Both the position numbers and the translations under genes were made by a program. A DNA stretch of 64,000 nt from Mesostigma viride (Eukaryota > Streptophyta > Mesostigmatophyceae > Mesostigmatales > Mesostigmataceae), in assembly GCA_009746045.1 (NCBI GenBank), contig RPFO01000497.1:1072970-1136969 (forward strand), in the 5' to 3' direction. Shown here one piece after another: positions 1,462 through 54,120 of the stretch; the first letter of the stretch is position 1, and the number at the start of each line of letters is the position of its first letter. The notes under the pieces were generated by a model. That model ran no database searches. It was not told the origin of the DNA and saw only the letters and a list, made by a program, of their open reading frames with translations.

Positions 1462-4154
1462 CTACACCTTCTTGACAATCTGAACCACATCCTCGTCATG
1501 CAGCTCGTGCTCCTGTGGGTTGCGCACGCCCACAACCGGGAAGGTAGCGGCATGACACAGTTTGCACGGTTGACGGGGAAGCGTTATCAGCATACATGAA
1601 ACTAATGCTGCCCAAAGCTTGGAGCAGGGGAACGCGTGCTGTGAGCAACTACATCGCCGTGTGCATGGATCGCTGCCAGGGGGCTCTGCCAGGAGGCACT
1701 TGCCCACGGGGCCCAGTTAGGAAAACGGAGGGTGGTTGCATTAAAGGAGGGGGCTGAACCAGCCGCGGCGAAAAGAGCTAGAAGAAAAAGTAGGAGGGGG
1801 GAGGTTCCAGAGGGGTGGGGTGGGGGGTGGACATGGCCAACACAGAGGCAGCTCTTATGGGCAAGGCAAGAAGGGGGACACATGGCCCCAAGATTGTTCC
1901 AGCACGCTTGTAGAAAACCAACAACCGGGTGGTGCTTTGGGATAGGGGTAGCGGGGTGTCAGGGACACCTCTCGGAAGGGGTGAGGTGGAGCAAAAGAGA
2001 ATACAAGTAACACAAGAGGACACAAGAGGATACAAGTAGGATCACCACACAGCACCCGCAGAGCACTTGCACTGCTGCCGGCCTATTTGCACGCCTTCAG
2101 CCGCGTGCCTTGCCCCTACGCTTTCAAAACCCTATTAATACACAATAGACACTACAACAAATCCGCGCCATATTTCATGGTTATTCGCTCAACTTGCCCC
2201 ATGCGCTGCGTGCTGAAATCCCTTAATCCTGGCCACAACCCGAACATACTTTCCATGCCTTATCTACGACTTACTCCCACCACGTATTGCGAATGCTTGC
2301 CCTGCCGACGCGCTGCGGGCTGGGATCTCTACACCCTACCCTTGAACCCACAGACCTCACTGACACCTCACTAAACACTCACTTAACACACCTCACTAAA
2401 CACTCACTTAACACACCTCACTAAACACTCACTTAACACACGTCACTAAACACTCACTTAACACACCTCACTAAACACTCACTTAACACACGTCACTAAA
2501 CACTCACTTAACACACCTCCCTAAACACTCACTTAACACACCTCCCTAAACACTCACTTAACACACCTCCCTAAACACTCACTTAACACACCTCACTAAA
2601 CACTCACTTAACACACCTCACTAAACACTCACTTAACACACCTCACTAAACACTCACTCAACACACCTCACTAAACACTCACTTAACACACCTCCCTAAA
2701 CGCTCACTTAACACACCTCCCTAAACACTCACTGAACACACCTCACTAAACACTCACTTAAGAGACCTCACTAAACACTCCCTTAAGACACCTCACTTAA
2801 CACTCACTTAACACACCTCCCTAAACACTCACTTAACACACCTCACTAAACACTCACTCAACACACCATTCTCACCCCGTGTTCCCGGCCATGCATGCGC
2901 GCACCTTGCCTTGCCCACGCGTTGCGGGCTGGCCTTCAAAACCCATGATCACATACATTTTGCAAGCTCTTGCTCGTTCTATCTCTGACTTGGGGAAGTT
3001 TCAAAGGGGGAGGGGCGGCCGCAGAAGGCAGGTCCGACTGAAGCATTTAAGGGATTGCACCTTGCAACACATTCGCACAGTTTATCCACAACTATTTCCC
3101 CACGCACCTTGCCCACGCGCTGCGGGCTGAACTTGACGGAGGACCCCCAGACCAGCGCGTACTTGAACTCCTTAAGCAGGCTCTTGTGAATGCGGTTGCA
3201 AAAGTCCTCGACCGTCCGGTGCTTGGAGTTGAGCACGACCGGGTCCTCGTAGTCCGGGTTGACGCCCTTTGGCTTTGTGTACACGCGCGTGAGGTCCAGG
3301 TACTCCCAGATCATCGCGAGCAGTCCCTGTAGGTTCCACTCGAGGTGCGCCGAGATTGGGCAGTAGTGGGGCATTTTGTCGAGAAGGTGGAGCTCCTCGA
3401 GGGTGATCTGGTCAACCTTGTTCATGACATAGATGCAGGGCATGTACACGCGGTTGCCCTCGATCACGTCGATGAGGTCGTCCTCGGTCGCCTCGCACTT
3501 GACGTTGATGTCCGCGTTGTGGATCTTGTACTCCTTGCAGATGGCCGTCACGGTCTCCAGGTCCAGGCTGTGGTTGACTGTCGACGTCATCGTGATGCCT
3601 CCGCGCTCCTTCTTGCGGACCGTGATGTTTGGAGGGGTCTTATTGAGGCGAATGCCAAACCCTTCGAGCTCTTTCTCGATGAGACGCTTGTGCGTGATCG
3701 GCTTAAGCGCGTCCAGGACGAGCAGGATGCAGCTGCACGTGCGCGCGACGGCGATGACCTGGCGACCGCGACCTTTGCCGTCCTTGGCGCCCTCGATGAT
3801 ACCGGGCAGGTCGAGCAGCTGGATGTTGGCGCCCTTGTAGCGGATCACGCCGGGCACGCAAGTAAGTGTGGTGAACTCGTAGGACGCTACTTCCGAGAAC
3901 GTGCCAGTGAGTTTGCAAAGGAGGGTGGACTTCCCTACGGATGGGAAGCCGACCAGACCGATGCGCGAATCGCCGGTTTTTGCCACATCGAAACCCTCAC
4001 CCCCTCCACCTCCCGTTTTCGCGGGGGCAAGGATCTCACGGCGAAGCTTGGCTAACTTTGCCTTCAATAGACCCAAGTGCCCGGACGTGGCCTTGTTTTT
4101 CTGCGTCCTGGCCATTTCGGCCTCGATATCTTTGATTTTTTCTAGGGTCGTCAT
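1462..4154 (-). CDS. DRG1: DRG1, developmentally regulated GTP-binding protein 1 (two exons)
   Basis: Predicted CDS: complement of 3108-4154 joined to 1462-1512, giving 365 aa (human DRG1 is 367). DRG1 is a cytosolic translation-associated GTPase of the OBG/HflX-like group that works with a DFRP partner. Visible in order: N-terminal helical segment with [13 protein letters not shown] (residues 11-23), G1 GFPSVGKST (69-77), G3 DLPG (115-118), G4 NKVD (245-248), and a C-terminal TGS domain (about 290-365). Unspliced, the long frame runs past VGK into unrelated sequence. The true end, [16 protein letters not shown], lies 1.6 kb downstream and aligns with the human C-terminus. Donor AAG|GTGCGT (3107) and acceptor CCCACAG|GAG (1513) are both phase 0. 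The 1595-bp intron holds a 25-bp minisatellite and copies of the exon end. Confidence 0.95.
2297..2932 (-). repeat. Copies of the DRG1 exon-1 end/donor inside its intron
   Basis: Exon 1 ends CAGCCCGCAGCGCGTGGGCA-AG|GTGCGT on the minus strand. The reverse complement of 2901-2932 reads CCAGCCCGCAACGCGTGGGC then AAGGCAAGGTGCG: the same exon end with one substitution and a 5-bp insertion before a GTGCG donor. The reverse complement of 2297-2323 reads CCAGCCCGCAGCGCGTCGGC then AGGGCA. A weaker third copy lies near 2080-2115. The two clear copies flank the minisatellite. Confidence 0.8.
2365..2866. repeat. 25-bp minisatellite in the DRG1 intron, about 20 copies
   Basis: Unit CTCACTAAACACTCACTTAA plus CACAC, repeating exactly every 25 bp (for example 2401, 2426, 2451), with scattered substitutions (CGTCAC, CTCCCT, AGAGAC variants). 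It lies wholly inside the predicted DRG1 intron. On the sense strand of DRG1 each unit contains AAGTGAGTG, close to a 5' splice consensus but lacking the G before GTGAGT. Confidence 0.95.
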
Positions 4155-5475
4155 TTTCGCAGCTAATGGAGCTCAGTCGGAGTGATAAATACTGCCTCGG
4201 CGAAGGTGAACAAGCGCTGCGCCTTTGTTCTAATGGATGCAAAGACCAAGCTGATTGTTCTGAGGATTATGTGATGTGCACTCCAACCCTCGCTTAACAA
4301 TCATACAATGCTGGGTAAACGTGCATAGAAACAGCCCTCTCGGAACGCAACCCGGTTTTGTCAAGCATGCGGCGACTTCTCATCCGGCGTTTGTACACGT
4401 CCTAAAAAATGCATGTAATAAACTAGCAACCGGGAAGCAAACTGGCAATGCGCCGTGGCTGCTGAGGGCGTAATACGCATGACGTGCAGGCGTGAAAACT
4501 CGATGATATCTCCGCTGCATTACCCGCGTATTCCAGGGCAGCGCGAGCAGGAGTGCAGGACCAGGTTGACGGATGGCAGCAAGTGATGATGAACTTACTA
4601 CCGTACATACAGTACAAGAACGAGTACACCCGCCCCCACGTTTAAGATTCTCAGGTTTAAGATCATGAGACTCTGGATGTGACCTATTGACCTCTACTAG
4701 TATTATAATTGTAGTAAAATGTAGTAGAACTTAGTAGAATAGAGTCAAAGTAGTAAGATTCTTCAAGATCTTGAGCCCTGGATTGGTCCGACCCCAGAAA
4801 AAACTGTGTGTAAACTAACACCCATTTCACCGGAAAATTTCACCGGAAAAAACTGTGTGTGGGGGGGGGGTACGAGTACAGATGGCAGCAATAGATGTGT
4901 GGGTTGCCAGCGGAAAGTGCGGTACATTATGTTGGTCCACGGCGTTGGACTCGCGAACGGGATTGCCTTGTGCATATTTTGCGGGATGTCAGCTGGGATA
5001 TGTCTAGTTGTCTAACGTGGGATTTCTTACGCTAGCTGCCAAAATTAATTATGTTAACCCAGGTTGCGCTTACTTCAGCCACAGCGTTGCATTGCAGGAA
5101 AGAGAAGGAGCAATAGCTAGCTTCAGAAAATAATCTAGCGCCCCAAGATGATTGGGTACAGTACCTCGTCTACTTCCGGATGCCTTGGCAAAGTGCAACA
5201 TGTGAGGTGGGCTCGGGTTTGAGATGGCAATGCAGTAGCCGGAGCTTTTTACCGTAGTGATGCCATGATGCCGATGAGGTCCGTTTCCCAAAACTCGGCG
5301 GGTACAATTGAGCGGGGTTCTGCGCCTCTCTAGCTTGCTTACGCCGCTGCCGACGAAAGCATGTTAACGGATCAGGTTTACATGGAAAAAGTAGCCAGGC
5401 ACTTCATTTGTAAAGCTCAAGTTTTTGCTGCAACGCTTTGACCGTGGTAAACCGCTCGGTACTTTCGCTATAATT
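4155..5475. promoter_or_regulatory. Divergent intergenic region between DRG1 and METTL18
   Basis: 1321 bp separate the DRG1 start codon (minus) and the chosen METTL18 start (plus), so both promoters must lie here. Purine-rich and AGTAG-like short repeats occur near 4700-4760 and a G-run at 4861-4870. I see no motif that I can name with confidence. Confidence 0.4.
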
Positions 5476-6390
5476 ATGGACCTCTGGGGTTCTGAGACAA
5501 CTCCATTTCGCTTCAATTTCGGCAGCGAGAACCCGCCTGCTACAAATGATTCCTGTGCACTACCCGTGGAAGAGCAGCCCGCCCTACCCTGCAGGGAAGT
5601 CTTTGCCGCCGAAGCGTCCGGGCATGAATTAGGGTTTGCTGCCGAGGAACTCAGCCTTCCTGAATGGGACGGCGTTGTTTTGCTTAAAGGCCGAGTCGTG
5701 TCCGAGCCCGTGCTGGCGAAGATCGTCGGCGACGCGCAAACGGCGGCCGCGTCGGACCTGGTCGCGGGTCGGTACGAGGGTGGCTTCAAGCTGTGGGAGT
5801 GCGCCCTTGACCTCGTCTCCTACCTATGCAAGCTGCCCCAGGAGCAGGGACTACGTGACAGGCGGGTACTAGAGCTTGGCTGCGGCCACGGTCTCCCGGG
5901 CGCATTCGCAGCAACGCATGGCGGCGCATCCTGCGTCCACCTGCAGGACTACAACGTGGACGTGCTGACGTCGCTCACGATCCCAACCCTGCAGCAGAAC
6001 CTGGCACACGTTGGCCGCGCTGGGGGTAGCATTGACGTTCGGTACTTTGCGGGCGACTGGGACGCCCTGGGCTCCGTCCTGCCGCTTTCCTCCGGCACCT
6101 CCAAGGCAGGCGGGGGCGGCTATGATGTCATCCTGTCCGCGGAATGCATCTATTCGATGGCCACCCTGGCCAAGCTCTTCCGGCTGATCAAGGCCTCCCT
6201 GGCGCGGCCACATGGCGTCGCGTACGTGGCGGCCAAGACGTACTATTTCGGGGTCGGGGGCGGCACGCGCCAGTTTGAGGCCCTTGTCCGCAGTGACGCG
6301 GACCCCCCCACCATGCTGGTGGACGTGGTTGCAACGTACGCGGATGGCTCGTCAAACATGCGGGAAATACTCCGGTTGCGATGGGCCTAG
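5476..6390 (+). CDS. METTL18: METTL18/HPM1-type protein-histidine N-methyltransferase
   Basis: Single-exon, 304 aa. The family (yeast Hpm1, human METTL18) uses S-adenosylmethionine to methylate a histidine of ribosomal protein uL3. Visible: DLVAGRYEGGFKLWEC (94-109; human has DLVPGVYEGGLKIWEC), SAM-binding motif I LELGCGHGLPG (132-142), motif II region LQDYNVDV (156-163), GDWD (193-196), YDVILSAECIY (216-226), and the family hallmark AKTYYFGVGGGTRQFE (253-268). The frame opens 17 codons earlier, but I chose the ATG at 5476 because human METTL18 also starts close to an FxFNF segment (FRFNF at 11-15). A uL3 modification role is inferred from the family. Confidence 0.93.
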   Translation: MDLWGSETTPFRFNFGSENPPATNDSCALPVEEQPALPCREVFAAEASGHELGFAAEELSLPEWDGVVLLKGRVVSEPVLAKIVGDAQTAAASDLVAGRYEGGFKLWECALDLVSYLCKLPQEQGLRDRRVLELGCGHGLPGAFAATHGGASCVHLQDYNVDVLTSLTIPTLQQNLAHVGRAGGSIDVRYFAGDWDALGSVLPLSSGTSKAGGGGYDVILSAECIYSMATLAKLFRLIKASLARPHGVAYVAAKTYYFGVGGGTRQFEALVRSDADPPTMLVDVVATYADGSSNMREILRLRWA

Positions 6391-7530: not shown

Positions 7531-7540
7531 GCGGAGCGGA

Positions 7541-16640: not shown

Positions 16641-16861
16641 CTTACACCAGACCTGGCAATAAACAAGCATTGATGGGATGGACCCAGCGATACATAATGG
16701 GCGTGCATGCGTAAAAAATATACACTATGCATGGCCCAATGGGCATGCATTCAAATAATTACAAATGAAGGCCGCCATGAGAGCACTGAAGCTAAACCAG
16801 ACCGGGCCACAATTAACCCTCCAGCACCAAAGTTCCACTGCATCATGTAAGACAAGCCTGA

Positions 16862-17809
16862 CATCCATCCATCCATCCATCCATCCATCCATCCATCCAT
16901 CCATCCATCCATCCATCCATCCATCCATCCATCCATCCATCCATCCATCCATCCATCCATCCATCCATCCATCCATCCATCCATCCATCCATCCATCCAT
17001 CCATCCATCCATCCATCCATCCATCCATCCATCCATCCATCCATCCATCCATCCATCCATCCATCCATCCATCCATCCATCCATCCATCCATCCATCCAT
17101 CCATCCATCCATCCATCCATCCATCCATCCATCCATCCATCCATCCATCCATCCATCCATCCATCCATCCATCCATCCATCCATCCATCCATCCATCCAT
17201 CCATCCATCCATCCATCCATCCATCCATCCATCCATCCATCCATCCATCCATCCATCCATCCATCCATCCATCCATCCATCCATCCATCCATCCATCCAT
17301 CCATCCATCCATCCATCCATCCATCCATCCATCCATCCATCCATCCATCCATCCATCCATCCATCCATCCATCCATCCATCCATCCATCCATCCATCCAT
17401 CCATCCATCCATCCATCCATCCATCCATCCATCCATCCATCCATCCATCCATCCATCCATCCATCCATCCATCCATCCATCCATCCATCCATCCATCCAT
17501 CCATCCATCCATCCATCCATCCATCCATCCATCCATCCATCCATCCATCCATCCATCCATCCATCCATCCATCCATCCATCCATCCATCCATCCATCCAT
17601 CCATCCATCCATCCATCCATCCATCCATCCATCCATCCATCCATCCATCCATCCATCCATCCATCCATCCATCCATCCATCCATCCATCCATCCATCCAT
17701 CCATCCATCCATCCATCCATCCATCCATCCATCCATCCATCCATCCATCCATCCATCCATCCATCCATCCATCCATCCATCCATCCATCCATCCATCCAT
17801 CCATCCATC
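16862..17809. repeat. (CCAT)n microsatellite, about 950 bp
   Basis: Uninterrupted CCAT repeats from 16,862 to 17,809 with no variant visible. All six frames read through as SIHP or MDGW-type repeats, so the long open frames here are not genes. The right flank (CGGGGTATAG...) leads into LINE 3' tail sequence. Confidence 0.98.
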
Positions 17810-17814
17810 GGGGT

Positions 17815-18180
17815 ATAGTCCTAGTACAGCCATGCTACGTCCTGGCTATGATGAGATTACTTGCCCACGCTCCTAGTGTTATGCCATGCTCACATGAGAG
17901 TCTTATTGCACCCACAGATTGCCGGATCGTTAGCGTGTCCGTTTAGCTAGCGTTCCCGAATGCAGCTGTGGCATGCCTTAGGCATGAAGGAGAGTGGGGG
18001 TCTCTGCCCTTTCTCCTGTTGTGCACACACAGGGATTAAAAGCACTTCGGTGCTCCGTGACTCCCCAACGGGAGCACGTGTTTAAATAATTAATTAATGA
18101 ATGAATCGGGGTTAACTAATGCTCCTTGACTCCCTAATGGGGGCATGAGTTTAATAAATGAATTAAGTAGTTAGTTAATA
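17815..18180 (+). mobile_element. LINE 3' UTR/tail with UUCG hairpin, copy A
   Basis: About 17,865-18,080 is nearly identical to 44,500-44,700 (TTATTGCACCCACAGATTGC, GAATGCAGCTGTGGCATGCC, TCTGCCCTTTCTCCTGTTG). At 18,041-18,054 AGCAC-TTCG-GTGCT forms a UUCG tetraloop hairpin. GTGCTCC (18,050-18,056) can alternatively pair with GGAGCAC (18,071-18,077). Both copies end in TAAT-type repeats. A weaker relative is at 18,110-18,160. Confidence 0.75.
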
Positions 18181-18194
18181 AATCAGGTTGATTC

Positions 18195-18310
18195 AGATGA
18201 GGTCCCTGCTGGTTCCTTGTGGACTGGCCAGCCAGGGAGATATCTTCTTACATGGTCAGGCCCTTGCCGACCATGTAACAACCTGTTAGGCGACGCAGTG
18301 GCCAACATTG
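18195..18310 (+). pseudogene. Strongly decayed LINE remnant
   Basis: A short frame reads GQPGRYLLTWSGP, matching the GQPGRHILTWPGP segment of the LINE copies at 7.3 and 13.1 kb. Nothing else of the element is left. Confidence 0.45.
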
Positions 18311-19240
18311 GACATACCGCCATATGTTTGTCTCCGCGATATGATTTTAGCTGACATGCAGAGCACAGACACTGTTGGCGTCATCCGCTCAACCCCTCTT
18401 ATTCATACATGGGACCTCGGATATGTAGGATTAGTAGCGTTGCCCAGGCGGACATTGTCAAAGACTACGACCCCCCAGTTGTGGGTCCTAGGAAATTTAA
18501 CAAGCATGATTGTCTCCTTGTTGATAGGCATTAATTCATCCTTGATGATAGGCATTGCTTGCGTGCAAGATTAGCTCGAGGCCCATATTTTAGACTACTA
18601 GCTGAGCTGTGGACATACATGTAGTTATTGACGTCTTGACGGATATTGACGTCTTGGGGGACTTCCACTATATCTTCTTTGGGGAATTCAGAGATCCCGG
18701 TCCCCCAACATGGACATGAGACTAATTAAAATCAATTAATCAATGTCATGAATAGAGCGCGTTCATGACGTTCAGTCATGAACAGAGCCCTAACCTTAAA
18801 CACATAAGAAAACAATTATGGCGGGCCATGTGACCAATGTAAGAAGCTTAGCCCCCAAACATATTGTTGTCTCACGTAATGAATCACTTGCTGATCAACA
18901 AATCGATGGTTATCTCATAGGCACAATGTACCTCTGACCATCATTGCTGGCCCATGCATGCATGCACCAATGGCAGCCTACATGACACATACATCGCTTA
19001 TTTGCCATGTAAAAAATGCGACAAAGTGTCCATATAGGTACTCATAGATTAGCACAAATTCCTTAGCACGATGTGGACAACTTTACTTAACGGTGAAAGC
19101 CTGTCTCGCCCTTATTGCCTTGAGGGTTCCCGGCGATAGGTCCTGTCTGTTGGTCGACATTTTTCTTTTGCAGCTGGCCATCGTCGGTAGGTATGAATGA
19201 TCTCGATGCTAGCAATTACGATGATGATACCCGAGGTAGT
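18311..19240. other. No gene seen
   Basis: A/T-rich sequence with short frames only. No recognisable domain, RNA gene or repeat structure apart from short TTAAT/CATG runs. Confidence 0.5.
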
Positions 19241-19990
19241 CTATACCTAGGATCGAGAGCTTCTTCTTGTATGGCAATGCCGGCAGTTAACTATTACTCC
19301 GAATAAAGAGTTAAGAGGTTGGCCCTCGGCAGTCGGCATGGCGATCACGGAGCGATGACGGGGCGATGACGGGGCGATGACGGGGCGTTGACGCGCGTGA
19401 TGAATAGGATCTGTTTGACAGGCGGCGGCTATTGGTAATATAGATTGTTGATTAAGAGAAGAGTTTAGATGTTGGCCCGTGGGCGATGACGGTGACGGCG
19501 TCACCGTCATCGCCCTCGACGGGCGTCATGAATACGACCTTTTTGATATGCGGCGGCTATTGGTAATATAGGTCGTTGACTACTACTCCGAATACAAATG
19601 TAAAGAGTTAAGAGGTTGGCCCTCGGCTGGCTCGGCATGGCGATCACGGGGCGATGACGGGGCGATGACGGGGCGTTGACGCGCGTGATGAATAGGATCT
19701 GTTTGATAGGCGGCGGCTATTGGTAATATAGATTGTTGATTAAGAGAAGAGTTTAGATGTTGGCCCGTCGAGGGCGATGACGGTGACGACGTCACCGTCA
19801 TCGCCCTCGACGGGCGTGATGATAAGCCCATGTTTGATATGCGGCAGCTATTGGTAGTATAGGTCGTTGACTATCACTCCGAATAAAGAGTTAACAGGTT
19901 AAGGCCCTCGGCCGGGCGATGACGGGGCGATGACGGGGCGTTGACGCTCGTGATGAATAGGACCTGTTTGATAGGCGGCGGCTATTGCTA
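19240..19990. repeat. Tandem array of about 290-bp units with long palindromes
   Basis: Two full and one partial unit share ACTCCGAATAAAGAGTTAAG-like, GGGGCGATGACGGGGCG, GATGAATAGGA and GGCGGCGGCTATTGGTAATA segments. Each full unit contains a perfect palindrome: 19,481-19,515 (17-bp arms, 1-base centre) and 19,763-19,815 (26-bp arms, 1-base centre; arm starts GCCCGTCGAGGGCGATGACG). Confidence 0.9.
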
Positions 19991-20014
19991 ATATATAGGT
20001 CGGATATTTGTGTA

Positions 20015-20455
20015 CCACCCCCCTCCTTCCCGCGGCAGGTACGCAGCGACCCGCTGTTGTCCTGGCTGCAATTGTGTATCACTTGTACGGTATTTGTGTA
20101 TCACTTGTACGGTATTTGTGTATCACTTGTCCTCCTTCCCACGGCAGGTACGCAGCGACCCGCTGTTGTCCTGGCTGCAATTGTGTATCACTTGTACGGT
20201 ATTTGTGTATCACTTGTAGCGTATTTGTGTATCACTTGTCCTCCTTCCCACGGCAGGTACGCAGCGACCCGCTGTTGTCCTGCCTGCAATTGTGTATCAC
20301 TTGTACGGTATTTGTGTATCACTTGTAGCGTATTTGTGTATCACTTGTCCTCCTTCCCACGGCAGGTACGCAGCGACCCGCTGTTATACTGGCGGTATTT
20401 GTGTATCACTTGTAGCGTATTTGTGTATCACTTGTACGGTATTTGTGTACCACCA
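20015..20455. repeat. 109-bp tandem repeat, four units, with about 20-bp sub-repeats
   Basis: CACGGCAGGTACGCAGCGAC recurs at 109-bp spacing (ACGCAG at 20,041, 20,150, 20,259, 20,368). Within units the sub-repeat GTATTTGTGTATCACTTGTA repeats two to three times. The open frames here are repeat artefacts. Confidence 0.9.
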
Positions 20456-20459
20456 CCCT

Positions 20460-21584
<1,125 letters not shown>

Positions 21585-21640
21585 TCCCACCCCCGCTCTC
21601 TTGTCCCTCCCGCACCCCTCCTCTCTCTTTCCCTTTTCCT

Positions 21641-21761
21641 TGGCTGTTGAGAAGGACTGGGGTGAAAACTCCAGACCGTTGGTGGCTGCCTTCAAGCAGG
21701 AAGTTTCAAGGATCAACAAGTTTTTGTGAGCTGTCTGATATGGTCACTGCTGCGACAAAGG
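21641..21761 (+). other. Possible exon relic ending in a consensus donor
   Basis: After a pyrimidine tract, the frame KDWGENSRPLVAAFKQEVSR-INKFL (21,651 on) looks protein-like but hits TGA. A neighbouring frame then reads CELSDMVTAATK up to AAAG|GTGAGT at 21,760. This could be a frameshifted exon. The family is not identified. Confidence 0.2.
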
Positions 21762-26396: not shown

Positions 26397-29316
<2,920 letters not shown>

Positions 29317-29958: not shown

Positions 29959-32900
29959 ATGCACCCAATTGTCGTGCCGGTTGCCATTGCTGCTGGATTG
30001 ATCATACGCAGGGCGCGGGGGGGCAGGAAAGACAAATCGGTAACGGACAGCACCGACTTATCACGTGTAGACAGTTTCAAGCTTGCTGAAATGGAGGCGG
30101 AGGCACTAGCCTTGGCGGATGAGAAACGGGAGGGATTGGAAATTACTACTTCTACCATGGTCAATGATAGAGGCTTTAATCTCTTCACATGTCGCTGGCA
30201 ACGCAAAGGTGCCACCGAGGTTCGCGGGGTTGTTTTCTTGATGACGGGATACGCGGATTACATCAGGGAGGTTGCCGATGGCAAGCTTCCAGGGCGATGG
30301 GGGGGGCTAGCGGAAGCAGCGAGGGACCTCGCCAGGAAAAACTACGCCTGCTTCGGGCATGACCATCAAGGGCAAGGCAGAAGCGAAGGCGTGCGGTGCC
30401 ACATTTCATCCTTCGAGTAAGTGTTGAAGGAATTATTGCTGTAGCGGCCGGCCACGATTCTTTATCGATTTCTGGGCACAACCAATTGCGTTACTAAAAG
30501 TGTTATCATTAGGCGTTGTCGGCATGCCGTGTGAGATTTGAAGATGGGCAGAGGAAGCGTCACCACGGCAGACAGCCCCGCAATTCAGGTCACTCTTGCA
30601 CCCCATGTGCGGGTTATCTTGGTAAAGCCGTGCACAAGGATCACTTACAAACGCTCCATGCTCCGCCTGCACGTTCAGTTCTATTCACCTAGTGGTCATT
30701 ATGACGCATGGCATTGAGCATAAGACGGCATTGGAAGAAGTCGCTGCATGACTTTTGTGACATGCTGGCGCCAGATGATTTTTAGAACGTACTGGTGCCA
30801 AGTTCTATCATTAAAGACCAGGTCTAGGCTGGCGCCAACTACGTTTGTGCCACAGCTGTTTAGTTCTTTTATGCTGTTGCCGCTTGTGATCCCATCAAAC
30901 TCATTATGCTGTGATCGTCCCATGCTCTTGTCTTCAGAACTGTGTGTGTGCACTCTCTAAATGGTTTGTCTCTAACTGTGTCTTTGCTCTCACCGAATGG
31001 TTTGGCCTTGACACTTCCGTGCCCTTCCCTTCCCACCCACCAGATCATGGGATACCATAAACCTTGTCCTGTTGCATGGGTCGCTGTTTCGCCGATGGAA
31101 ACTTTACTGCTGCCGCCAGACACTTTATGATTGCTGTCCCCAAACAGCATTCTGGCTAACGGTGTACTGCCTCGCTACCTCGTTTGTATTGCATTTCTAC
31201 TGCCCACCCTCAGGCACACTATCGTGGGTGCACTCCAGTAGATGTTGTTAACCACATACCGCTGTTTCTTTGCCCATGAAACATACCTCCCCCCCCCACC
31301 CCCCTTTCCCCCTCAGGAATCTGATCGTGGACGCGCTTCAGTTCATCGACAGCGTGCTGGAGGCCAACCCGGCACTGTCCTCCCTGCCCCGCTTCCTGAT
31401 CGGCGAGAGCATGGGCGGGGCGCTCTGCGTGCAGCTCGCGCGGAGGCGGCCGGATTTCTTCACCGGCGCGGTCCTCCTCGCGCCCATGGTGGAGATCCAC
31501 CCGTCCATGATGCCCGCGTGGCCGGTCGTACAGGTGGGTGGTGCCCGCACCCGTTCATGATGCCCACCTGGCAGGTGGGTGCTTCCGGTTTGCAGGGCTG
31601 CCCCCCCACCCCCCACCCCTTCCCCCCCTCCTTTGTGTGCGCACAACTCCCAGTGCGCATGCGCATGTGCCTGCCTGGAGCCATGGGATCAGACCGCCGC
31701 CCTCGAGGGGTTGCCCTCACCAAGCGTAGGGGGTGATGCCGCCCGTGTCCTCTCGTGTGTAGCCCCACTGCAGCCAGGGGTTGCCCTCACCAAGTAGGGG
31801 GTGATGCCGCACGTGTCCTCTCGTGTATAGCCCCTCTGCAGCCAGGGGTTGCCCTCACCAAGTAGGGGGTGATGCCGCACGTGTCCTCTCGTGTATAGCC
31901 CCTCCGCAGCCAGGGGTTGCCCTCACCAAGCGTAGGGGGTGATGCCGCACGTGTCCTCTCGTGTGTAGCCCCTCTGCAGCCAGGGGTTGCCCTCACCAAG
32001 CGTTGGGGGTGATGCCGCACGTGTCCTCTCGTGTGTAGCCCCTCTGCAGCCAGGGGTTGCCCTCACCAAGCGTAGGGGGTGATGCGGCACGTGTCCTCTC
32101 GTGTGTAGCCCCTCCGCAGCCAGGGGTTGCCCTCACCAAGCGTAGGGGGTGATGCCGCACGTGTCCTCTCGTGTATAGCCCCTCTGCAGCCAGGGGTTGC
32201 CCTCACCAAGCGTAGGGGGTGATGCCGCACGTGTCCTCTCGTGTGTAGCCCCTCTGCAGCCAGGGGTTGCCCTCACCAAGCGTAGGGGGTGATGCCGCAC
32301 GTGTCCTCTCGTGTATAGCCCCTCTGCAGCCAGGGGTTGCCCTCACCAAGCGTAGGGGGTGATGCCGCCCGTGTCCTCTCGTGTATAGCCCCTCTGCAGC
32401 CAGGGGTTGCCCTCACCAAGCGTAGGGGGTGATGCCGCACGTGTCCTCTCGTGTATAGCCCCTCTGCAGCCAGGGGTTGCCCTCACCAAGTAGGGGGTGA
32501 TGCCGCCCGTGTCCTCTCGTGTATAGCCCCTCTGCAGCCAGGGGTTGCCCTCACCAAGCGTAGGGGGTGATGCCGCCCGTGTCCTCTCGTGTGTAGCCCC
32601 TCTGCAGCCAGGGGTTGCCCTCACCAAGCGTAGGGGGTGATGCCGCCCGTCTCCTCTCGTGTGTAGCCCCTCTGCAGCCAGGGGTTGCAGGACGTGAAGC
32701 CTAGGTCGGCCACGTGCGCGCGTTTATTCCTGCCCTCGTGTGGAAGCCAACACGGGTGTCGGGGCCACGGTTGTTACGGCATCAACAGGTTTCCTGGGCA
32801 TGGACAAGTCTTTCTCGGTGGCTGTCTTTACATCAGGTTGGGCATGTGCCCTGATGGGGTTCCTGGCATGTATGGGGATTATCGTCCGTGCGCTGTCGCA

Positions 32901-34614
32901 GTGTGCACCCATGCAAGTACTCCCTTTCGTCATCTGAGGCAAGCAAATCCGTAGCCTTCAGGTGGGTAGAATTTGGAGAGTGTGCATTCATTCATTCCGA
33001 AATTTCTGTGCACAGGAGAATATGCATTCGCTCAACCCGAAATTTCTGTGCTGCGCACCCTCTCTTTTACTGCCCCTTTTGCCGCCCTCTTCCCCCCCTC
33101 TTTTCTCATCCCATCAGGTTCTGAAGGTGGCGGCCCACCTGGTGCCCAAAGCGGCCGTGGTGCCGGGCGACAGTGTGCGGCTGCTGGAGAAGTGCGTGCA
33201 CGACCCGCAGATGCTGGAGCAGGCGCTGCACGACCCGATGGCCTACCATGGTGCGCGCCGTTTTTTTTATTTATATGTTTAGTTATTTACTTGTGTGTGT
33301 GGTGATGGCCTACCACGGTCCGTGCCATTTTATTAATTTATATATTTGGTTATTTACTTTGTGTGTGTGTGTGTGTGGCAGCGGCCTACCAGGGTGCCCA
33401 CCGTCTCTTTTCCTTCTTTCTTCTGTGTGAGTGTGTGCGGCGATGGCCTACCACGGTGGGTGCCGGTTGACAGTTTCACGCTGCGTGCAGCTTGCCTTGC
33501 CTACCGCAATGTGTGCAGCTGGTGTGCGGGTCTGTCTCTGGCGGTCCATGCACACTTGGGCACCTATGAGCATTTCCCACCTGCGCGATGCGTGGGGATG
33601 GCCCACCTTGGTGCATCGAATGGTCCGCTGCGGTGCCGACTGTGGTAGTGTGACATGGTGAGGGAAGTGATTATGGCGTACAGCGGGGCAACAAATGGCT
33701 GACTGGGTGTATATGGCGGGATATATGATGGCAGTGGAGACAGTGATGCGACCCGCTGTGTGGTGCCACAAAGCTTCGGGTCATTTTATCGCGTCTTTCA
33801 GATTTAACCCCAGCAGCATCTGGCACGGTGGAGTGATGGGAATGGTTGCTTTCTTGTCTGCACGGGGTTGCATTCAGCAAGCGACCTTCATTCGTCACTT
33901 GCGTGTTCCATGGACCGGCCCCGGCCCTTATCACCTGCCCACCTTTATGCCTCTATTGTTGATTCTCAATTGTCTCTTGTCCTGCCCTCCTGCCTGCAGG
34001 CCGTGCGCGTCTGAAGACGTCGCTGGAGCTGATGAACGCCACGCACAACATCCAGAAGAATTTCCGCGAGGTATAGGGGCCTTTTTTGTGTTTTGAGAGA
34101 TCTTTTTGTTATCATTGGGCAATTTCTAGCAGACTTTCATGACCAGAAAGATTTTTTCTCGGCACTTGATGCACTCTTCTCCCGCTTGACTCCTCCCACT
34201 TGACACACCCTTCCAGTTCCTCCGCGGGGTCCTCCCCATTCTTCACCCTCCCTCCTCCCCCCCCCCGGCCCCCATAGCTTTTCCGGCCCCTTTCCCCCTG
34301 GCTCATCCCCATTCTCTTCCCACTCATCATCCACCCCTTGACCTCCCCCCCCCTCCCCCCCCCAGTTCACCACGCCGCTGCTCATCCTGTTCGGCACGGA
34401 GGACACGGTCACCCGCCGCGAGAGTGCCGAGGCGCTGTACAACAAGTGCGGGAGCTCGGACAAGACCTTTCTGCAGATCGACGGCGGCTGGCACGCGCTG
34501 CTGGACGAGCTGGACGTGGTCGTCAAGCGCGTCAAGTCTGAGATCATCGGCTGGATCGACCAGCGGGCCACGGCAGGCGCGGCCGCCGCTGCCGCAGCAG
34601 CAGCGACGCCATGA
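29959..34614 (+). CDS. MGL: Monoacylglycerol lipase-like alpha/beta hydrolase, five exons
   Basis: Predicted CDS: 29959-30416, 31317-31533, 33118-33250, 34000-34070, 34366-34614; 375 aa. All introns are GT-AG with matching phases (2,0,1,0). The protein starts MHPIVVPVAIAAGLIIRR, a likely membrane anchor. Hydrolase features: FLMTGYADY oxyanion-side loop (93-101), FGHDHQGQGRSEG (132-144), nucleophile Ser184 in GESMGG, acid Asp306 in GTEDTV, base His336 in GGWHALL. These fit the plant/algal MGL (caffeoylshikimate-esterase/lysophospholipase-like) group, which cleaves monoacylglycerols or lysophospholipids at lipid droplets or ER; the exact substrate is unknown. The Ala-rich tail ends TGA at 34,612. 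Introns 2 and 3 contain exon-end echoes; intron 2 also has a 70-bp minisatellite. Confidence 0.92.
31551..31580 (+). repeat. Donor echo of lipase exon 2
   Basis: Exon 2 ends CCGTCCATGATGCCCGCGTG...GTACAG|GTGGGTGGTG (31,501-31,540). 31,551-31,580 reads CCGTTCATGATGCCCACCTG then GCAG|GTGGGT: the same exon end with a short deletion and an intact donor. Confidence 0.8.
31705..32690. repeat. 70-bp minisatellite in lipase intron 2, about 14 copies
   Basis: CCAGGGGTTGCCCTCACCAA recurs every 70 bp (for example 31,981 and 32,051), with 68-bp variants lacking CG before TAGGGGG. Frames through it (AW..RHHP type on minus) are repeat artefacts. Confidence 0.95.
33299..33620 (+). repeat. Four donor echoes of lipase exon 3
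   Basis: Exon 3 ends CCGATGGCCTACCATG|GTGCGCGCCG (33,250). Downstream copies: GATGGCCTACCACG|GTCCGTGCC (33,304 on), GCAGCGGCCTACCAGGGTGCC (33,376 on), GCGATGGCCTACCACG|GTGGGTGCC (33,440 on) and a weaker GGGATGGCCCACCTTG|GTGCATC (33,596 on). The first spacers also match each other (TTTAT...TTATTTACTT then GTGTGTG). Confidence 0.88.
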
Positions 34615-34830
34615 GCAGATGGGGACTGGGGGTGAAGGAAGTTTGAAGGGCATGGGGATTGCCATGCGGGCGACGGCTGGTGCGCCCGCAGCCACCGCTG
34701 CAGCGACGAAATGAGGGAATGGGGATTGGGGGTAAATAAGTTTGAGGGGCTAGGGGATCAGCGAGCGGGTGATCCACGTGCTGCCCGCCGCCACCGCTAC
34801 AGGAGACGAGATGGGTGGGGGTGAGGGGGA
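34575..34830 (+). repeat. Echoes of the lipase stop-codon region
   Basis: The CDS ends ...GCAGCAGCAGCGACGCCATG-A followed by GCAGATGGGGACTGGGGGT. Downstream, GCTGCAGCGACGAAATGA...GGGAATGGGGATTGGGGGT (34,695 on) and CCACCGCTACAGGAGACGAG-ATGGGTGGGGGT (34,790 on) repeat this junction, each with CCCGC-x-GCC upstream. Confidence 0.7.
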
Positions 34831-38536: not shown

Positions 38537-39914
38537 CTAAGCTGGGGCGTCTGGAGTCGCTGGGGCCGCGGGGGTCGCCTGCCAGGGCTTGTGGCCGACG
38601 TAGATGGCCGCCCCCTTCCAGTACACCGGCTGCCCCGCCTTGGTCTGCCGGAGCTGGAGGTAGGTCGGCCATAGCTCCCGTCGCCGTTGTTGCTGCGCCA
38701 GGGTCAGGTCGTCATCAAGGGTGAAGAGAGTCTTCTCGAGCCGCTTGCGGCGTCTGAGAAAAGAAATCTTGTCCGCCGGGGTCTTAAAGGTGAGAAGGAG
38801 CGGGGGCGGCCCTGCCTTACCCCGCGCGCGGGGAAGGCGGTGGGCGGCCAGCTCGATCTCACCAGTAAGGCCCATGCGATCAAGGATTTCTCTCTCAAAA
38901 GCACGCGCAAGCTTCTCGGAATTCTCACCTTCCTCCATCTTGAGATTCTTGACAATGACGTTAAGGCTGCGCTTAGCGAGCTCGGCCTCCTCGCGGAGGT
39001 CAAGCGTCTGCCGCTGGAGCTGTGCTGCGACGGCGGAGGTGGTGGAGGTGGTGTGCTGCTTAAGCATGTCCGCCCAGGTCGTGATGGGAGGAGCATCGCC
39101 GGCCAGGCCAGCAGGGGCTGGCTTGGCGGCAATGTCCTTCACCGCCTGGGCGGTGAGGCCGGCGGTGTTCTGCAGGACCTCGACATCTGGCGATTGCGTT
39201 GTCTTTAAGACGCTGGTCGATTTCACGGAGCTGGGCGGTGATGGCGTCGGAGGTGGGGGTGGTGGCGGTGGAGGAGGCGAGGAGGGTGGCGGTGGCGGTG
39301 GGGATGGTGGAGAGGAGGGGGAGCTCGGCAGCCAGCGTGCTGCCCATGGCCGCCACATCTGCAGCGATGGGGGCCACGTGCTGCTCGAGGGCCTCCTTGA
39401 GGAGTGAGCGGATGGAGGATTCGGTTAAGGTGGTGGTGAGGGGCTTTGGGGGCCAAAGCTCCTCGATGGAGCGTCCAAGGAGGGAAAAGAGGGCGAATTG
39501 CTGGAGGTGGGGGCGGCGGGCGGTGAGGACGTCTTTGCCGAAATTGCGCCTCTGGAGGCGGGCATTGACAAGGCGACCTTGGTGGGAAAGCTGCTTGCAC
39601 AGTTCTAGAAGAGAGGCATGCGTCCCGAAAAACACATGGCCCAGGATGCGATCGGGTGTAAGCTTGTCAAAATAGCCGGGCTGGCTGGCGTCAAAGTCGT
39701 ACTCATCCAGCAGCCCGTCAGAACGACTGCGCTTGGGTTCGGGCGACGCTGCTGGCGATGCGGGCGCAGCAGGGGGCTGGACGACCACTAGAGCTTGGCT
39801 AGTGGCGCCGCTGCCTTCTGGGCCGGTGGGCGAAGCTGCAGCCGAAGCTGCAGACGTATTTTCATTGCCGAGCGCAGCCGTCAGGCTGCGTTGCGTCGAT
39901 GGGCGTTTGCTCAT
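38537..39914 (-). pseudogene. LINE ORF1 protein gene, near full length, one frameshift
   Basis: Starts MSKRPSTQRSLTAALGNENT at 39,914, with a Pro/Ala-rich N-terminus and a Ser/Arg basic stretch (EPKRSRSDG). Around 39,180 the frame shifts, then continues with a coiled-coil-like segment (QRQTLDLREEAELAKRSL), NVIVKNLKMEEGE, REILDRMGL, HRLPRARGKAGPPPLLLTFK, FLRRRKRLEKTLFTLDDDLT, QPVYWKGAAIYVGHKP. This order (coiled coil, RRM-like, basic C-terminal domain) is that of nucleic-acid chaperone ORF1p of L1-like elements. A second C-terminal copy is at 43.99-44.32 kb. Confidence 0.75.
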
Positions 39915-40084
39915 CGTATATTGCGTAATAGCGTCGGAAAATTATATCAGCATGTGCGTCTTAGAAAGACGAAGCGATTGTGATATTCACGACTAAATTC
40001 GGTGCTCAAACGTGAAAGTTATGAGCGCCGCTGTCAGCCATGGCTACCTCGTGGCTCGTGGCTCGTGGCGCGTAACAGGGATCT

Positions 40085-41254: not shown

Positions 41255-41288
<34 letters not shown>

Positions 41289-41837: not shown

Positions 41838-42245
<408 letters not shown>

Positions 42246-47204: not shown

Positions 47205-47620
47205 ACTACGTGTGTAGCGCATTCCGCGTTCACGAGTTCGTGCACTCATCATGCAGGCAGGCAGGCAGGGAACAATAGGGTAAATGGAAGGCACACCCAT
47301 TTAAACATTCAATGATGATAGAACAAAGAACCTTGGTAGGCTTTGGGGCCATCTGCACCCGTTGATAGAGAACCAGACCCATATTACAAGCCCATATATA
47401 CAAATGAAAGGGCCCACACTGGTCATTCTGATCCAAGTGAATACCACATCATGTCTTTGATTGCCGTTCTCCAAGTAACACCATGACCAAAAATTCAAAT
47501 GCAAACCCTGGCCGATGTTTCAGGCCTGTGATTATAATGTCTCATCGATACCCTGGCCCATCACAATGTATCGCCCTCACGTGTGGTGGCCATAATAACT
47601 TAAGTGTCGTGTTGGATAAC

Positions 47621-50299: not shown

Positions 50300-51254
50300 T
50301 CAAACAAAGCTTTGCTAACGTAGACCGGCATGCATCACAGCGGGTTTGGCTCTTACCTTGTCACACATTTCAGCGCAACAAAGTAAGGTGGGCATGGCAT
50401 GGCGGACAGCTACTGTTATCCATATTCGCTGCCCTGAGTGCGAGTGCTGAATATTGACTTTAGCGTCCAGTACTTCGCTGATTGCCACATGTATGATGTT
50501 GAGGTTGTTGTTGATTGCCACATGGATGCTCAGCCCCGTGCGCTGGGGGGAAAAGTGGCCGCGCCCAGAATGACGTGCCCTGACAGGCGTGCGGTTGGCA
50601 AAGTGATGCGCAAGAGTCTGCGCATCTTGATGCTCAGCGGGCATACGGCACCAGACTGCGGCACCCCTGCATGCCACTGCACCTTAAAGGGATTCTGGAG
50701 CGTTACTTCCGATTTCACACGTGTCGCCTGTTCGTGATTCCAGATGCTTTTCGCTCTCGTCCGCTGGCCAGAGTTTCCCGCGCATTGGCCGGCCACAGTC
50801 GCGCTAGTATGTACAAGTTAGGCGAAGGCCCGGCGTCAGGTCAAAGCTAAAGAAGGTAACGAGTTTACTTTGCTTTTCCGATAACGCAGTCCAAAACCGA
50901 TGGATGATAGATGAGCCTCACTCGAGCCACGGAGTCACTGGAGTGTCACTGGAGTACATCAGTCCATGCTCATGTACAACAGCGCGGGAGTATTAGGCAG
51001 AGATTAGGAAACCGGGTACTATAACCAGTCGTGTTACTTGTTCCAGCGGCCTTCATGCCAAGGCCTTAGGCCACCCTCGGGAAAGTTGGTCCGACAGAGA
51101 TCAGCAGGCACAATACCCGACGTGCATGACGTCGATCCTCGCTGAAAGTCGATGGCATCTAACCCAGAATTAATCGATTGTGCGTTGCCCAGTTTTGTTG
51201 GATAGCTTAAAACTCATGGTCTAGCTCATATCCCAAAGTCGAGTGCGTGCAGGC
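50300..51254. promoter_or_regulatory. Divergent intergenic region, FAR and PATROL1-like genes
   Basis: 955 bp between the two opposed start codons must hold both promoters. Short frames only. I see no named motif. Confidence 0.4.
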
Positions 51255-53860
51255 ATGGAGACCCATGCTGACCCACGAGCCAAGGAGAGGCGCGACTTGT
51301 TACAATTTATTGTGGAAACGTATCATGGCATGGGCCGTATAAGCTTGCCACCGCAAGCCAAGAGCGTAGCCGATATTGACTATTCCTTGCTGGCCGTTGG
51401 GACAGAGCAGCTGATTTCGATTCTGCGAGCTGGGCAGACGCTTGACTTGAGCAACACTCCGCTTGTTCGTGTCAGTCTGGATGCCGCGGCACGCGGCGAT
51501 ACATTCCCTCATTCGGGCCCGGATGCCGGTACTCTGCAATCCTCCACCCCCGAGGTGAGGCTGGGAAGCTTGTACGGTCCGCTCCCCGCGCTAGACGACC
51601 CCGAGCTGTACAACAGCGGCAGTGAAGGCGACCAGCCCGTCGTATCGGCCGACCTGTCTCCCTACGCTAGCACCCTAGATGAAAGCCACGGTACCGCCCT
51701 GCAGAGCACGGCGTATGCCGTCCTGTGCTGGTGCACGGCGGAGGAGCTGGGCAGCGAGGATGCGCTGGCGATCATGCAGGAGCAGCTCGGGCTCCAACCC
51801 GGCGAGGCGTCCGCGATACGCGGCGTCGTGGACAAGATGATGGGATCGGGCCACGTGTCCGCCTCCATGCAGCTCCCACTGCACCTGCTTCTCTCGTTAC
51901 GGCCATCTCATTTCCCCTCCCACAAGCATTTCACACGTTGGGTGCTGGGCCAATGCCGCGTCCTCTCGGAGGGCCTCCACTTGGCGCTCACGGAGCCATC
52001 ATCAGGGCAGGAGGGCCAGAACTCGGCCCAGGAGCCGAATGAGGGCCAGGCGGGGGTCAAGGACGTTCTGGGCAAGCTGGATGGGCTTGTTCGTGACGTG
52101 GAAGCGCTGACCACGGCAACACAGTGGGAGGAGCCGCGCTACCTCCGGGCAATGGCCACGCTTCGGGCGTACGTCACGGATATCTCCGAGGCAGGATCCC
52201 CGGATGTGGGCCTGGCCCCAACAGGTACTGCCCGTTGGTGCCTCTTTCCTTATCCATTGACGCACTGCTCCCCTTTGTCCTTCCTGTTCCCTCTGGGCGC
52301 TGCCCCCCTGCCACCTGCTCCTTGCCACCTGCTGCTTGGCGCATGTGGCATTGGGGGAGGGGCATGGGGCGGGGGGCGGGGGGCAGGGGGCGGGGGGCGG
52401 GGGGCAGGGGGCGGGAGGCGGGAGGCGGGGGCGGGGGCGGGGGCGGGGGCGGGGGGCGGGGGCGGGGGGCGGGGGCGGGGGGCGGGGGGCGGAGGGCGGG
52501 GGGCGGGGGCCGGGGGCGGGGGCGGGGGGCGGGGGGCGGGGGGCGGGGGGCGGGGGGCGGGGGGGGGGCGGGGGGCGGGGGGCGGGGGCGGGGGGGGGCG
52601 GGGGGCGGGGGCGGGGGCGGGGGGCGGGGCGGGGGCGGGGGGCGGGGGCGGGGCGGGGGCGGGGGGCGGGGGCGGGGGCGGGGGGGGGGCGGGGGGCGGG
52701 GGCCGGGGCGGGGGGGCGGGGGCGGGGGGCGGGGGCGGGGGGCGGGGGGCGGGGGGGGGGGGGCGGGGGCGGGGGGCGGGGGGCGGGGGCGGGGGCGGGG
52801 GGCGGGGGGCGGGGGCGGGGGCGGGGGCGGGGGGCGGGGGGCGGGGGGCGGGGGCGGGGGGCGGGGGCGGGGGGCGGGGGCGGGGGGCGGGGCGGGGGGC
52901 GGGGGCGGGGGGCGGAGGGCGGGGGGCGGGGGGCGGGGGGCGGGGGGCGGAGGCGGGGGGCATCGGGCAGCGGGCAGCGGGCAGCGGGCATGGGGCAGGG
53001 GGCGCATTACTTGTGTCTTCGTGTGCCCGCTATGTTGGGAATTAATGAATCTTATTAGTTAACACATAGACTGTGTCACGTGAGCATGAATCCTCCAATG
53101 TTGGGGATGTCACCCCTTGTGTGAGGGTGGTGAAAGGAGGCAGCGCATCTGGCGGTTGCGTATCTTCAGGCTGGTCGCAGTGGCAGGGAATCCGCTTCTC
53201 GGGGCCCTAGGCTTCACAAGTGTGGCCGCTTCCCCTCACCCCCTCTGCTCAACAGGAAGGGCATGGCTCATGTCATCTTGGCGAGGTATAGCCCTCTCAC
53301 GCCATCGCACCCCTCCATTGCTCCTCTCATCCCGCCTGCTTTATTGAAGTCGCGCTGCGGATCATCCTCGAACACCAACCTCGACCCCATCCATCATCCT
53401 GCACCCCCCCTCCTGTTCGTGATCACTCGTCTCCCCATATCCACTGTCATCCGCCCCCACGTGACGCAGTCACGTCCTTATTAATTAATTAAACACGTGC
53501 TCCCCCCCCTTCCTGTTCTTCATACCCCCCTTCAACCTTCATTCCCCCCACCCTTTTTTGTTCATCATCCCCCGCCCCCCCTTGGATGCATTCCTTTCCG
53601 CCACAAACACCCCTGCACACACCCCAGGCTGGCACTTCCGCTACCCACTGAGCATGCAGCTCTACGAGACGCTCCTGCGCAGCATCTTCGACGTTCTCGA
53701 GGAGGAGGAAGGGAAGCTGATCGAGGAGGTGCCCACCGTGCTGGAGGCGCTGTCCACCACGTGGGGCGCGTTGCACGTGACCAAAGTCACCCACGCGCTC
53801 ACGCACGCGTGGGTGTTGTTCCGGCAGTACCAGGCCACGCGAGAGCTGGGGCTGGGACTT
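51255..53860 (+). CDS. PATROL1: PATROL1/unc-13-like MUN-domain (DUF810) protein, 5' part
   Basis: Predicted exons 51255-52224 and 53628-53860 (first about 401 aa); the gene continues beyond the window. Plant PATROL1 is a MUN-domain tethering factor that brings the plasma-membrane H+-ATPase to the cell surface; unc-13/Munc13 proteins prime vesicle fusion. Exon 1 begins METHADPRAKERRDLLQFIV; an upstream in-frame TAG makes 51,255 the first ATG. Exon 2 (GWHFRYPLSMQLYETLLRSI, THALTHAWVLFRQYQATREL) aligns with plant PATROL1 (YHLNVRLYEKLLLCVFDIL, HYTCYAWVLFRQYV). Splices: ACAG|GTACTG (phase 1) with CCCCAG|GCTGG, then GGACTT|GTACGT (phase 0). Intron 1 (1403 bp) is filled with a G-rich repeat. Intron 2 contains donor echoes and then at least 9.8 kb of satellite. 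Confidence 0.82.
52366..52970. repeat. G-rich (GGGGGC)n-type tract, about 600 bp, PATROL1 intron 1
   Basis: Runs of 4-12 G separated by single C (occasionally A) continue from 52,366 to about 52,970; the G-rich strand is the sense strand of the gene. Three long frames on each strand are pure Gly/Arg/Ala or Pro/Arg/Ala and are repeat artefacts. Confidence 0.97.
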
Positions 53861-53904
53861 GTACGTGGTTTGGTGGTTGGGAGAGCAGGGCTGATTGCAC
53901 TCGT

Positions 53905-54120
53905 AGGGAGAAGCAACAGGAGCTGGGGCTGGGGCTGGTACGCGCAGCAGTGTTGATCGAATTGCGCAGTGAATCAGGTTGCGCTGAGTTCGGTTGCGCG
54001 TTGAGTATTGATGAGGAGCAACCTGGCAGCTGGTACTGGGACGGGTACGTGCGGCAGTGTTAATCAAGGTAGGGTTAACAGCAAAAGGTAGTGGAGAGCC
54101 ATGTGGCAGCTGGGATTTGG
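53905..54120 (+). repeat. Donor echoes of PATROL1 exon 2
   Basis: Exon 2 ends GAGAGCTGGGGCTGGGACTT|GTACGTGG. Copies: AGGAGCTGGGGCTGGGGCTG|GTACGCGCAGCAGTGTT (53,919 on), GGCAGCTGGTACTGGGACG|GGTACGTGCGGCAGTGTT (54,023 on), and a weak GGCAGCTGGGATTTGGATC (54,102 on). The latter precede the satellite, which begins about 54,175. Confidence 0.82.

What the first reader, a model, noticed from the sequence alone, without database searches (positions are those of the whole stretch)
1462..54120. Recurrent 'donor echoes': exon end plus 5' splice site copied into the following intron
In five of nine resolved introns (DRG1 i1; HHE i2; lipase i2 and i3; PATROL1 i2) the last 15-40 bp of the upstream exon and its GT donor are repeated one to five times downstream in the intron. 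The copies lie 3' of the exon end in every case. Genes, sequences and unit lengths all differ, so this is a process, not a repeat family. Four of the five introns also hold large tandem arrays; introns without echoes are mostly short (295-1403 bp). Inference: a local duplication process acting just past exon ends seeds tandem arrays and lengthens introns, and creates decoy donors. I know of no described system matching this.
Basis: partly seen in the sequence, partly recalled or inferred. Interest (0 to 1): 0.88.

Follow-up and report, generated by a model that had tools for sequence, protein, structure and literature searches.

The report
Tandem duplications crossing intron starts
In several genes of this alga-like genome, short stretches of DNA spanning the end of an exon and the start of its intron have been duplicated into the intron, probably as ordinary local duplications that survive because the cell still cuts at the first copy.

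Summary
In the window, 5 of 8 resolvable introns (DRG1 i1, HHE i2, lipase i2 and i3, PATROL1 i2) hold 1-5 downstream copies of the exon end and donor; the best copy in each beats 300 shuffles. The acceptor mirror gives 0 of 7 at score 28.

The window is an outlier. At score 30, 42 outside introns show 3 donor echoes (7%, CI 1.5-19.5%) and 0 acceptor echoes, against 276 of 841 intron tiles and 1 of 203 exon tiles. Three echo sets are clean tandem arrays whose first unit crosses the donor. The lipase stop codon has the same kind of tandem echo, with no splicing involved. Echo GTs are kept at the neutral rate, 16 of 21. Large arrays in three echo introns show no relation to the echoes.

Best reading: local duplication everywhere plus survivorship, because the first donor keeps working. 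A donor-specific process is not needed but not excluded. The window excess and the core-only echoes (DRG1, PATROL1 i2, one outside intron) remain unexplained.

The parts
3108..4154 (-). DRG1 first coding exon; its last 22-24 nt are the echoed core
   Evidence: Pfam MMR_HSR1_Xtn/MMR_HSR1/TGS; gene finder, trained on it; PDB match to ribosome-interacting GTPase 1
1513..3107 (-). DRG1 intron 1, GTGCGTGG...ACCCACAG
2909..2931 (-). DRG1 echo 1, 22/23, exon -22 to +1
2300..2322 (-). DRG1 echo 2, 21/23
2190..2217 (-). DRG1 echo 3, 24/28
2363..2867 (.). 25-bp tandem array inside DRG1 intron, no detectable relation to the exon end
28443..28818 (-). HHE (hemerythrin-like) exon whose end starts the 56-bp array
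   Evidence: Pfam Hemerythrin; exon, intron
26664..28442 (-). HHE intron 2, GTGGGTAC...CCCCACAG
28145..28413 (-). five HHE echoes (28372-28413, 28317-28357, 28269-28301, 28212-28245, 28145-28163), period 56 for the first four
31534..33117 (+). lipase intron 2, GTGGGTGG...CCCATCAG
   Evidence: exons as
31549..31576 (+). lipase i2 echo, 24/28, shift about 50
31706..32688 (.). 70-bp array in lipase intron 2, no significant relation to the exon end (p=0.10)
33251..33999 (+). lipase intron 3, GTGCGCGC...GCCTGCAG
   Evidence: exons as
33304..33614 (+). four lipase i3 echoes (33304-33331, 33383-33404, 33441-33468, 33597-33614)
34586..34802 (+). tandem duplication crossing the lipase stop codon (34612-34614): echo of the coding end in the 3' flank
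   Evidence: extent -62 to +118, 136/184
53628..53860 (+).
   Evidence: end not confirmed by a next exon
53861..64000 (+). PATROL1 intron 2 (acceptor outside window), with a 31-bp array from 54170
53920..53942 (+). PATROL1 echo 1, 21/23
54028..54051 (+). PATROL1 echo 2, 20/24

Best explanation
Donor echoes are the 5' edges of ordinary local (mostly tandem) duplications in a repeat-rich genome. A segment of roughly 30-100 bp that happens to span an exon end is duplicated. All later copies fall inside the intron. If the spliceosome keeps using the first, exon-proximal donor, the extra copies are spliced out and the change is nearly neutral, so it survives and decays. Duplications inside exons, or across acceptors (where the upstream copy would tend to be used), change the mRNA and are mostly removed. 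Shown: the copies, their tandem geometry in three of eight cases, the contrast with exon tiles and (pooled with the window) with acceptors, neutral retention of echo GTs, and a stop-codon case without splicing. Inferred: the duplication mechanism (slippage or repair), first-donor use, and exon definition in this organism.
For: At score 30: exon tiles 0/54 in the window and 1/203 outside, acceptors 0/7 and 0/42, donors 5/8 and 3/42, intron tiles 79/178 and 276/841. Over 45 introns (window and C2), score 24 within 400 bp: donor 8, acceptor 3, mid-exon 1, intron interior 9. The lipase stop codon has the same kind of tandem echo downstream. Echoes keep GT in 16 of 21 copies against 0.80 expected from 479/535 core identity, so there is neither purging nor preservation. 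PMC9225289 (passages, section 9 whole, section 10 part 1): in transfected minigenes under exon definition, two equal strong 5' sites 52 nt apart gave exclusive use of the upstream one; 3' sites keep an upstream preference that is reduced under exon definition. All 8 echo introns are 652 nt or longer.
Against: With uniform array starts, 0.09 donor-crossing arrays are expected in the window and 5 are seen; outside, 0.31 are expected and 1 is seen (ungapped). DRG1, PATROL1 i2 and the helicase-like intron echo only an 18-28 nt core; for DRG1 and PATROL1 i2 the intron side shows no similarity (p=0.31 and 0.32), which plain tandem duplication does not predict. Among HHE echoes the exon-derived half is more alike than the intron-derived half (147/162 against 122/174). 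The donor/acceptor contrast is not significant outside the window alone (p=0.24; p=0.006 pooled). Acceptor scores of 28, 28, 31 and 35 occurred among the 74 introns, all four in a C2 block I then dropped as transposon-like. In PMC9225289 the unfiltered transcriptome shows about 60% downstream 5' preference, and intron definition favours the downstream 5' site; which mode this organism uses is unknown.
Confidence: 0.6

Rival explanations
1. A process specific to exon ends (transcription- or splicing-coupled copying, or breaks just past the donor) duplicates exon-end sequence and seeds arrays.
For: Window excess, 5 against 0.09 expected. Under the ungapped clustering, all 4 spaced clusters in the window sit at donors (one of them, lipase i3, is tandem), while the 2 spaced clusters outside are interior. 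Echo extents in the spaced cases run from between -9 and -36 to between -7 and +13.
Against: Outside the window donors (3/42) are far below intron tiles (276/841). Large arrays show no relation to echoes. The stop-codon echo needs no splice site.
Confidence: 0.15
2. Short templated insertions during break repair (polymerase-theta-like; recalled, not looked up) copy 18-28 nt from nearby sequence. Copies of exon ends stay recognisable because the exon copy is frozen by selection.
For: Core-only copies in DRG1, PATROL1 i2 and the helicase-like intron. Exon-echo identity is higher than echo-echo identity in DRG1 (60/72 against 51/72).
Against: Copies occur 2-3 times with nearly constant ends, and DRG1 shifts of 198, 302 and 409 (after subtracting the 25-bp array; 198, 302 and spacings 104, 107 stand out) look periodic. 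HHE, lipase i3 and the ankyrin-like intron are plain tandem.
Confidence: 0.13
3. Echo donors are selected decoys (for example U1 binding sites that protect or regulate long introns).
For: Some echo donors outscore the true donor: HHE 12.2 against 9.0, PATROL1 10.7 against 7.7, lipase i3 10.1 against 6.2.
Against: GT retention is neutral (16/21 against 0.80). All three DRG1 echoes lack GT at the aligned donor position while keeping the exon part.
Confidence: 0.05
4. Echoes are target-site duplications or pieces of a transposon or introner family.
For: One copy of a CCT-family intron appears to carry a large insert that the near-identical copy lacks, so elements do enter introns here.
Against: HHE and PATROL1 echo DNA match only their own locus. 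Up to five copies per intron. The other echoes were not searched genome-wide.
Confidence: 0.04
5. Chance similarity or wrong splice sites.
For: The lipase i2 query finds an equal score (36) elsewhere in 344 kb. PATROL1 i2 splice site unverified. Outside, the reverse-complement null gives 2/42 at donors and 3/42 at acceptors at score 24, and 2/42 and 2/42 at score 26.
Against: The best echo in each of five window introns beats 300 shuffles. Reverse-complement null 0/8 and 0/42 at donors at score 28. Protein continuity across 7 of 8 echo introns, judged by eye against recalled relatives.
Confidence: 0.03

Closest known systems
Minisatellite-type local tandem duplication
   Same: Head-to-tail units of 33-67 bp in the three clean cases; HHE and PATROL1 copies unique to their locus.
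   Different: The first unit includes the coding exon end and its donor.
Intron gain by tandem duplication of an exonic AG/GY segment (PMC2891723, passages seen; PMC4974935, search listing only)
   Same: Tandem duplication near a splice motif creates an extra donor copy.
   Different: Here the copies lie inside the intron and none ends at the acceptor; no new intron is bounded by them.
Competing duplicated 5' splice sites and upstream preference under exon definition (PMC9225289; Lang and Spritz 1983 seen only in its reference list)
   Same: Two or more similar donors in series, the upstream one expected to be used.
   Different: Natural duplications rather than minigenes; usage not measured here.
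Tandem-repeat-rich introns (Daphnia survey PMC3152781, passages)
   Same: High repeat density in introns.
   Different: No mention of repeats crossing splice sites in the passages shown; 'splice' occurs 0 times in its main text.

Membership tests
Local tandem duplication / minisatellite | Head-to-tail units at constant spacing covering the whole unit | tested here: inconclusive
   Met for HHE, lipase i3 and C2 21659; partly for lipase i2 and C2 29419 (0.58 and 0.60 of the unit); not met for DRG1, PATROL1 i2 and C777 50737
Local tandem duplication / minisatellite | Copies confined to one locus | tested here: met
   HHE and PATROL1 each match only their own locus genome-wide; the other six only compared within 344 kb (lipase i2 ties elsewhere)
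Intron gain by tandem duplication | Intron bounded by the two copies, so a copy of the exon end lies at the acceptor | tested here: not met
   In the four window echo introns with a known acceptor no echo ends at it (positions); acceptor mirror 0/7 and 0/42 at score 28
Introner or transposon target-site duplication | Shared mobile sequence between copies at different loci | tested here: inconclusive
   No second locus for HHE or PATROL1 echo DNA; the DRG1 search did not complete
Selected decoy donors | GT kept above the neutral rate | tested here: not met
   16/21 against 0.80 expected
Upstream-first 5' site choice | First donor used in RNA | not testable with these tools
   No RNA; only protein continuity by eye

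The most novel reading that the evidence does not exclude
Exon ends act as frozen templates: a donor-adjacent process repeatedly copies the last 10-35 exon bases and the donor into the intron, and exon-directed conversion keeps the copied cores exon-like while spacers turn over. Long introns then accumulate a graded ladder of near-equal donors of which only the first is used.
Probability: 0.15. Interest if true: 0.75.

Novelty: new variant of a known kind. Interest (0 to 1): 0.42.

Why it matters
If the survivorship reading holds, genomes like this one contain natural series of near-identical 5' splice sites with their own exon context. That lets one ask directly which copy is used, and why, across genes. 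It also gives a neutral baseline against which claims of functional decoy splice sites must be judged, and predicts a donor/acceptor asymmetry of duplications that follows the mode of splice-site definition.

Tried and rejected
Dispersed repeat family: no second locus for HHE and PATROL1. The DRG1 query did not complete.

Echoes as seeds of the large arrays: no sequence relation detected in four introns.

Selected decoys: GT retention neutral.

Allele comparison for intron growth: the CCT-family pair on C887/C1641 appears to differ by a large insertion, not by echoes; its exon end shows no echo by eye. Only the first 1200 nt of the longer copy were fetched.

Gene finder: the first settings over-predicted and were tightened. 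It joins neighbouring genes and is trained on window genes and on the C2 tiles themselves. Rows dropped before the counts: from 62 introns I removed the 6 window rows (replaced by 8 hand-resolved ones), C2 tiles 80-90 kb, those beyond 125 kb and plus-strand rows beyond 114.5 kb, and C777 rows outside two gene regions, as transposon-like or mispredicted. A C777 row with five strong donor-side hits (21793) was dropped as a mispredicted 63-bp array. The four acceptor hits of 28 or more lay in the dropped C2 block. These choices were mine, by eye.

The protein database was switched off. Literature: six answered searches, whose listings were capped at 10-15 papers (one search listed 15 of 45), showed by title and abstract start no paper on duplications crossing 5' splice sites as a class. 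I saw passages of four papers (the last, PMC2397502, had no direct bearing) and, of one, a whole section and part of another.
Full report
WHAT WAS TESTED. The window lies at C2023:1072970-1136969 of a 439.9 Mb, 2243-contig assembly. Gene content looks green-algal to me; the organism was not identified. I re-derived eight introns: DRG1 i1, HHE i2, lipase i1-i4, PATROL1 i1 and i2.

OBSERVATION. The 55-nt donor query finds strong downstream copies in 5 of 8 introns, each beating 300 shuffles. The mirror query at the acceptor finds none in 7 at score 28; lipase i1 and i4 reach 24 (p=0.010 and 0.10). The reverse-complement null in the window is 0/8 and 0/7 at scores 24 to 34.

IS IT GENERAL? I built a small gene finder (C Viterbi with a coding model), seeded with window genes. 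It returns my DRG1, lipase and HHE junctions, partly by training, and misses PATROL1. I applied it to 280 kb from two other contigs. After dropping transposon-like and mispredicted rows by eye (listed in Tried and rejected), 42 outside introns remained. At score 30: donors 3/42, acceptors 0/42, exon tiles 1/203, intron tiles 276/841. At score 26: donors 5/42, acceptors 1/42, with a reverse-complement null of 2/42 on each side. The three cases are an ankyrin-repeat-like gene (C2 tile position 21659, minus strand, 3 copies at shifts 34, 67 and 100), a WD40-like gene (C2 29419, plus) and a DEAD-box-helicase-like gene (C777 50737, minus). These names come from my reading of the translations; no family search was run on them. 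Two weaker donor matches (C2 60171 and 93770) and one acceptor match (C2 11340), all at 27, lie below the cut. The outside donor rate (7%) is close to that of any 55-mer outside masked arrays (5.2% in C2 at score 36). The window rate of 5/8 differs from 3/42 at p=0.0012. A first-stage reader reports what stands out, so some of this is selection, but I cannot size it.

GEOMETRY. Banded alignments of the junction against each echo give three clean tandem arrays (HHE, lipase i3, C2 21659), two partial ones (lipase i2, C2 29419) and three core-only cases (DRG1, PATROL1 i2, C777 50737), where only 18-28 nt match. In DRG1, after cutting out the 25-bp array, the strongest shifts are 198, 104, 302 and 107, which suggests an old unit of about 104 bp, yet the intron side shows no similarity (p=0.31). 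Left ends are nearly constant within an intron: DRG1 -22, -22, -24; HHE -27 four times, then -13 for the fifth copy. That fits one array edge per exon.

BACKGROUND AND ASYMMETRY. Donor-crossing arrays expected from the density and period of arrays wholly inside introns: 0.09 for the window donors (5 seen) and 0.31 for the outside donors (1 seen, ungapped). A frozen exon copy makes old duplications visible longer than interior ones. I infer a factor of about two, which does not explain the window. In introns of 400 nt or more with both ends known, the last 50 exon nt hold repeats in 3/6 window and 3/37 outside introns; the first 50 exon nt after the acceptor in 0/6 and 0/37. Pooled, donor against acceptor is 8/50 against 0/49 (p=0.006); outside alone p=0.24.

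SAME THING WITHOUT SPLICING. The lipase stop codon lies in the first unit of a duplication of about 100 bp (34586-34802; extent -62 to +118, 136/184). A copy beyond a stop is harmless, as is a copy beyond a used donor. It is 1 of 11 gene ends tested: 5 in the window, one of which (HHE) was not placed on a stop codon, plus 6 outside, several transposon-like. None of the 10 start-side positions tested, one of them one base off, reached 24.

ECHO DONORS. 16 of 21 echoes keep GT, against 0.80 expected from 479/535 core identity. The lipase i2 echo is counted as lost because of an internal gap, although a GT lies 5 nt away. Several echo donors outscore the true donor, and 18 of 49 introns have some better-scoring GT within 400 nt, so strength alone does not pick the donor in these models. 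PMC9225289 reports upstream 5' sites favoured under exon definition, downstream ones under intron definition, and 3' sites with an upstream preference that exon definition reduces. That offers a reason for the donor/acceptor contrast; its application here is inference.

WHAT DOES NOT FIT. The window excess, the core-only echoes, and the greater likeness of exon-derived over intron-derived halves among HHE echoes (147/162 against 122/174). That last comparison is affected by ascertainment, since echoes were found through an exon-heavy query, and by the ragged end of the array.

VERDICT. A real and recurrent pattern, best read as ordinary local duplication filtered by splicing; a donor-specific copying process is possible but not needed. 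Interest is moderate because it yields a clean, testable prediction about 5' splice-site choice. On re-checking the calls I mended several statements (DRG1 residue count, gene-finder independence, lipase i1 acceptor p-value, the four dropped acceptor hits); none required a change of odds.

Noticed in passing
window 54170-64000: 31-bp satellite-like array of about 320 copies running to the window end, apparently inside PATROL1 intron 2.
   Followed up: no
window 16862-17809: Perfect CATC array, 237 copies, 100% matches; may be recent or actively homogenised.
   Followed up: no
G000 C887:345951-346950 and C1641:63651-64850 (L034, L035): Two near-identical copies of a CCT-family gene intron diverge abruptly about 390 nt in; exon spacing is 907 nt in one and 4082 nt in the other, so one appears to carry a large insertion and the assembly seems to hold alleles or recent duplicates.
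   Followed up: partly
C2 tiles (origin 3,700,001), positions 16786-21658: Intron of 4873 nt with a 30-bp array of about 4 kb starting about 230 nt after the donor, next to a donor-crossing 33-bp array of unrelated sequence.
   Followed up: partly
window 34586-34802: Tandem duplication crossing the lipase stop codon, a coding-end echo without splicing.
   Followed up: yes
window 38537-39941, minus strand; C2 and C777 tiles: ORFs sharing TWADMLKQHTTSTTS-like segments in the window and both other contigs, perhaps a mobile element.
   Followed up: no
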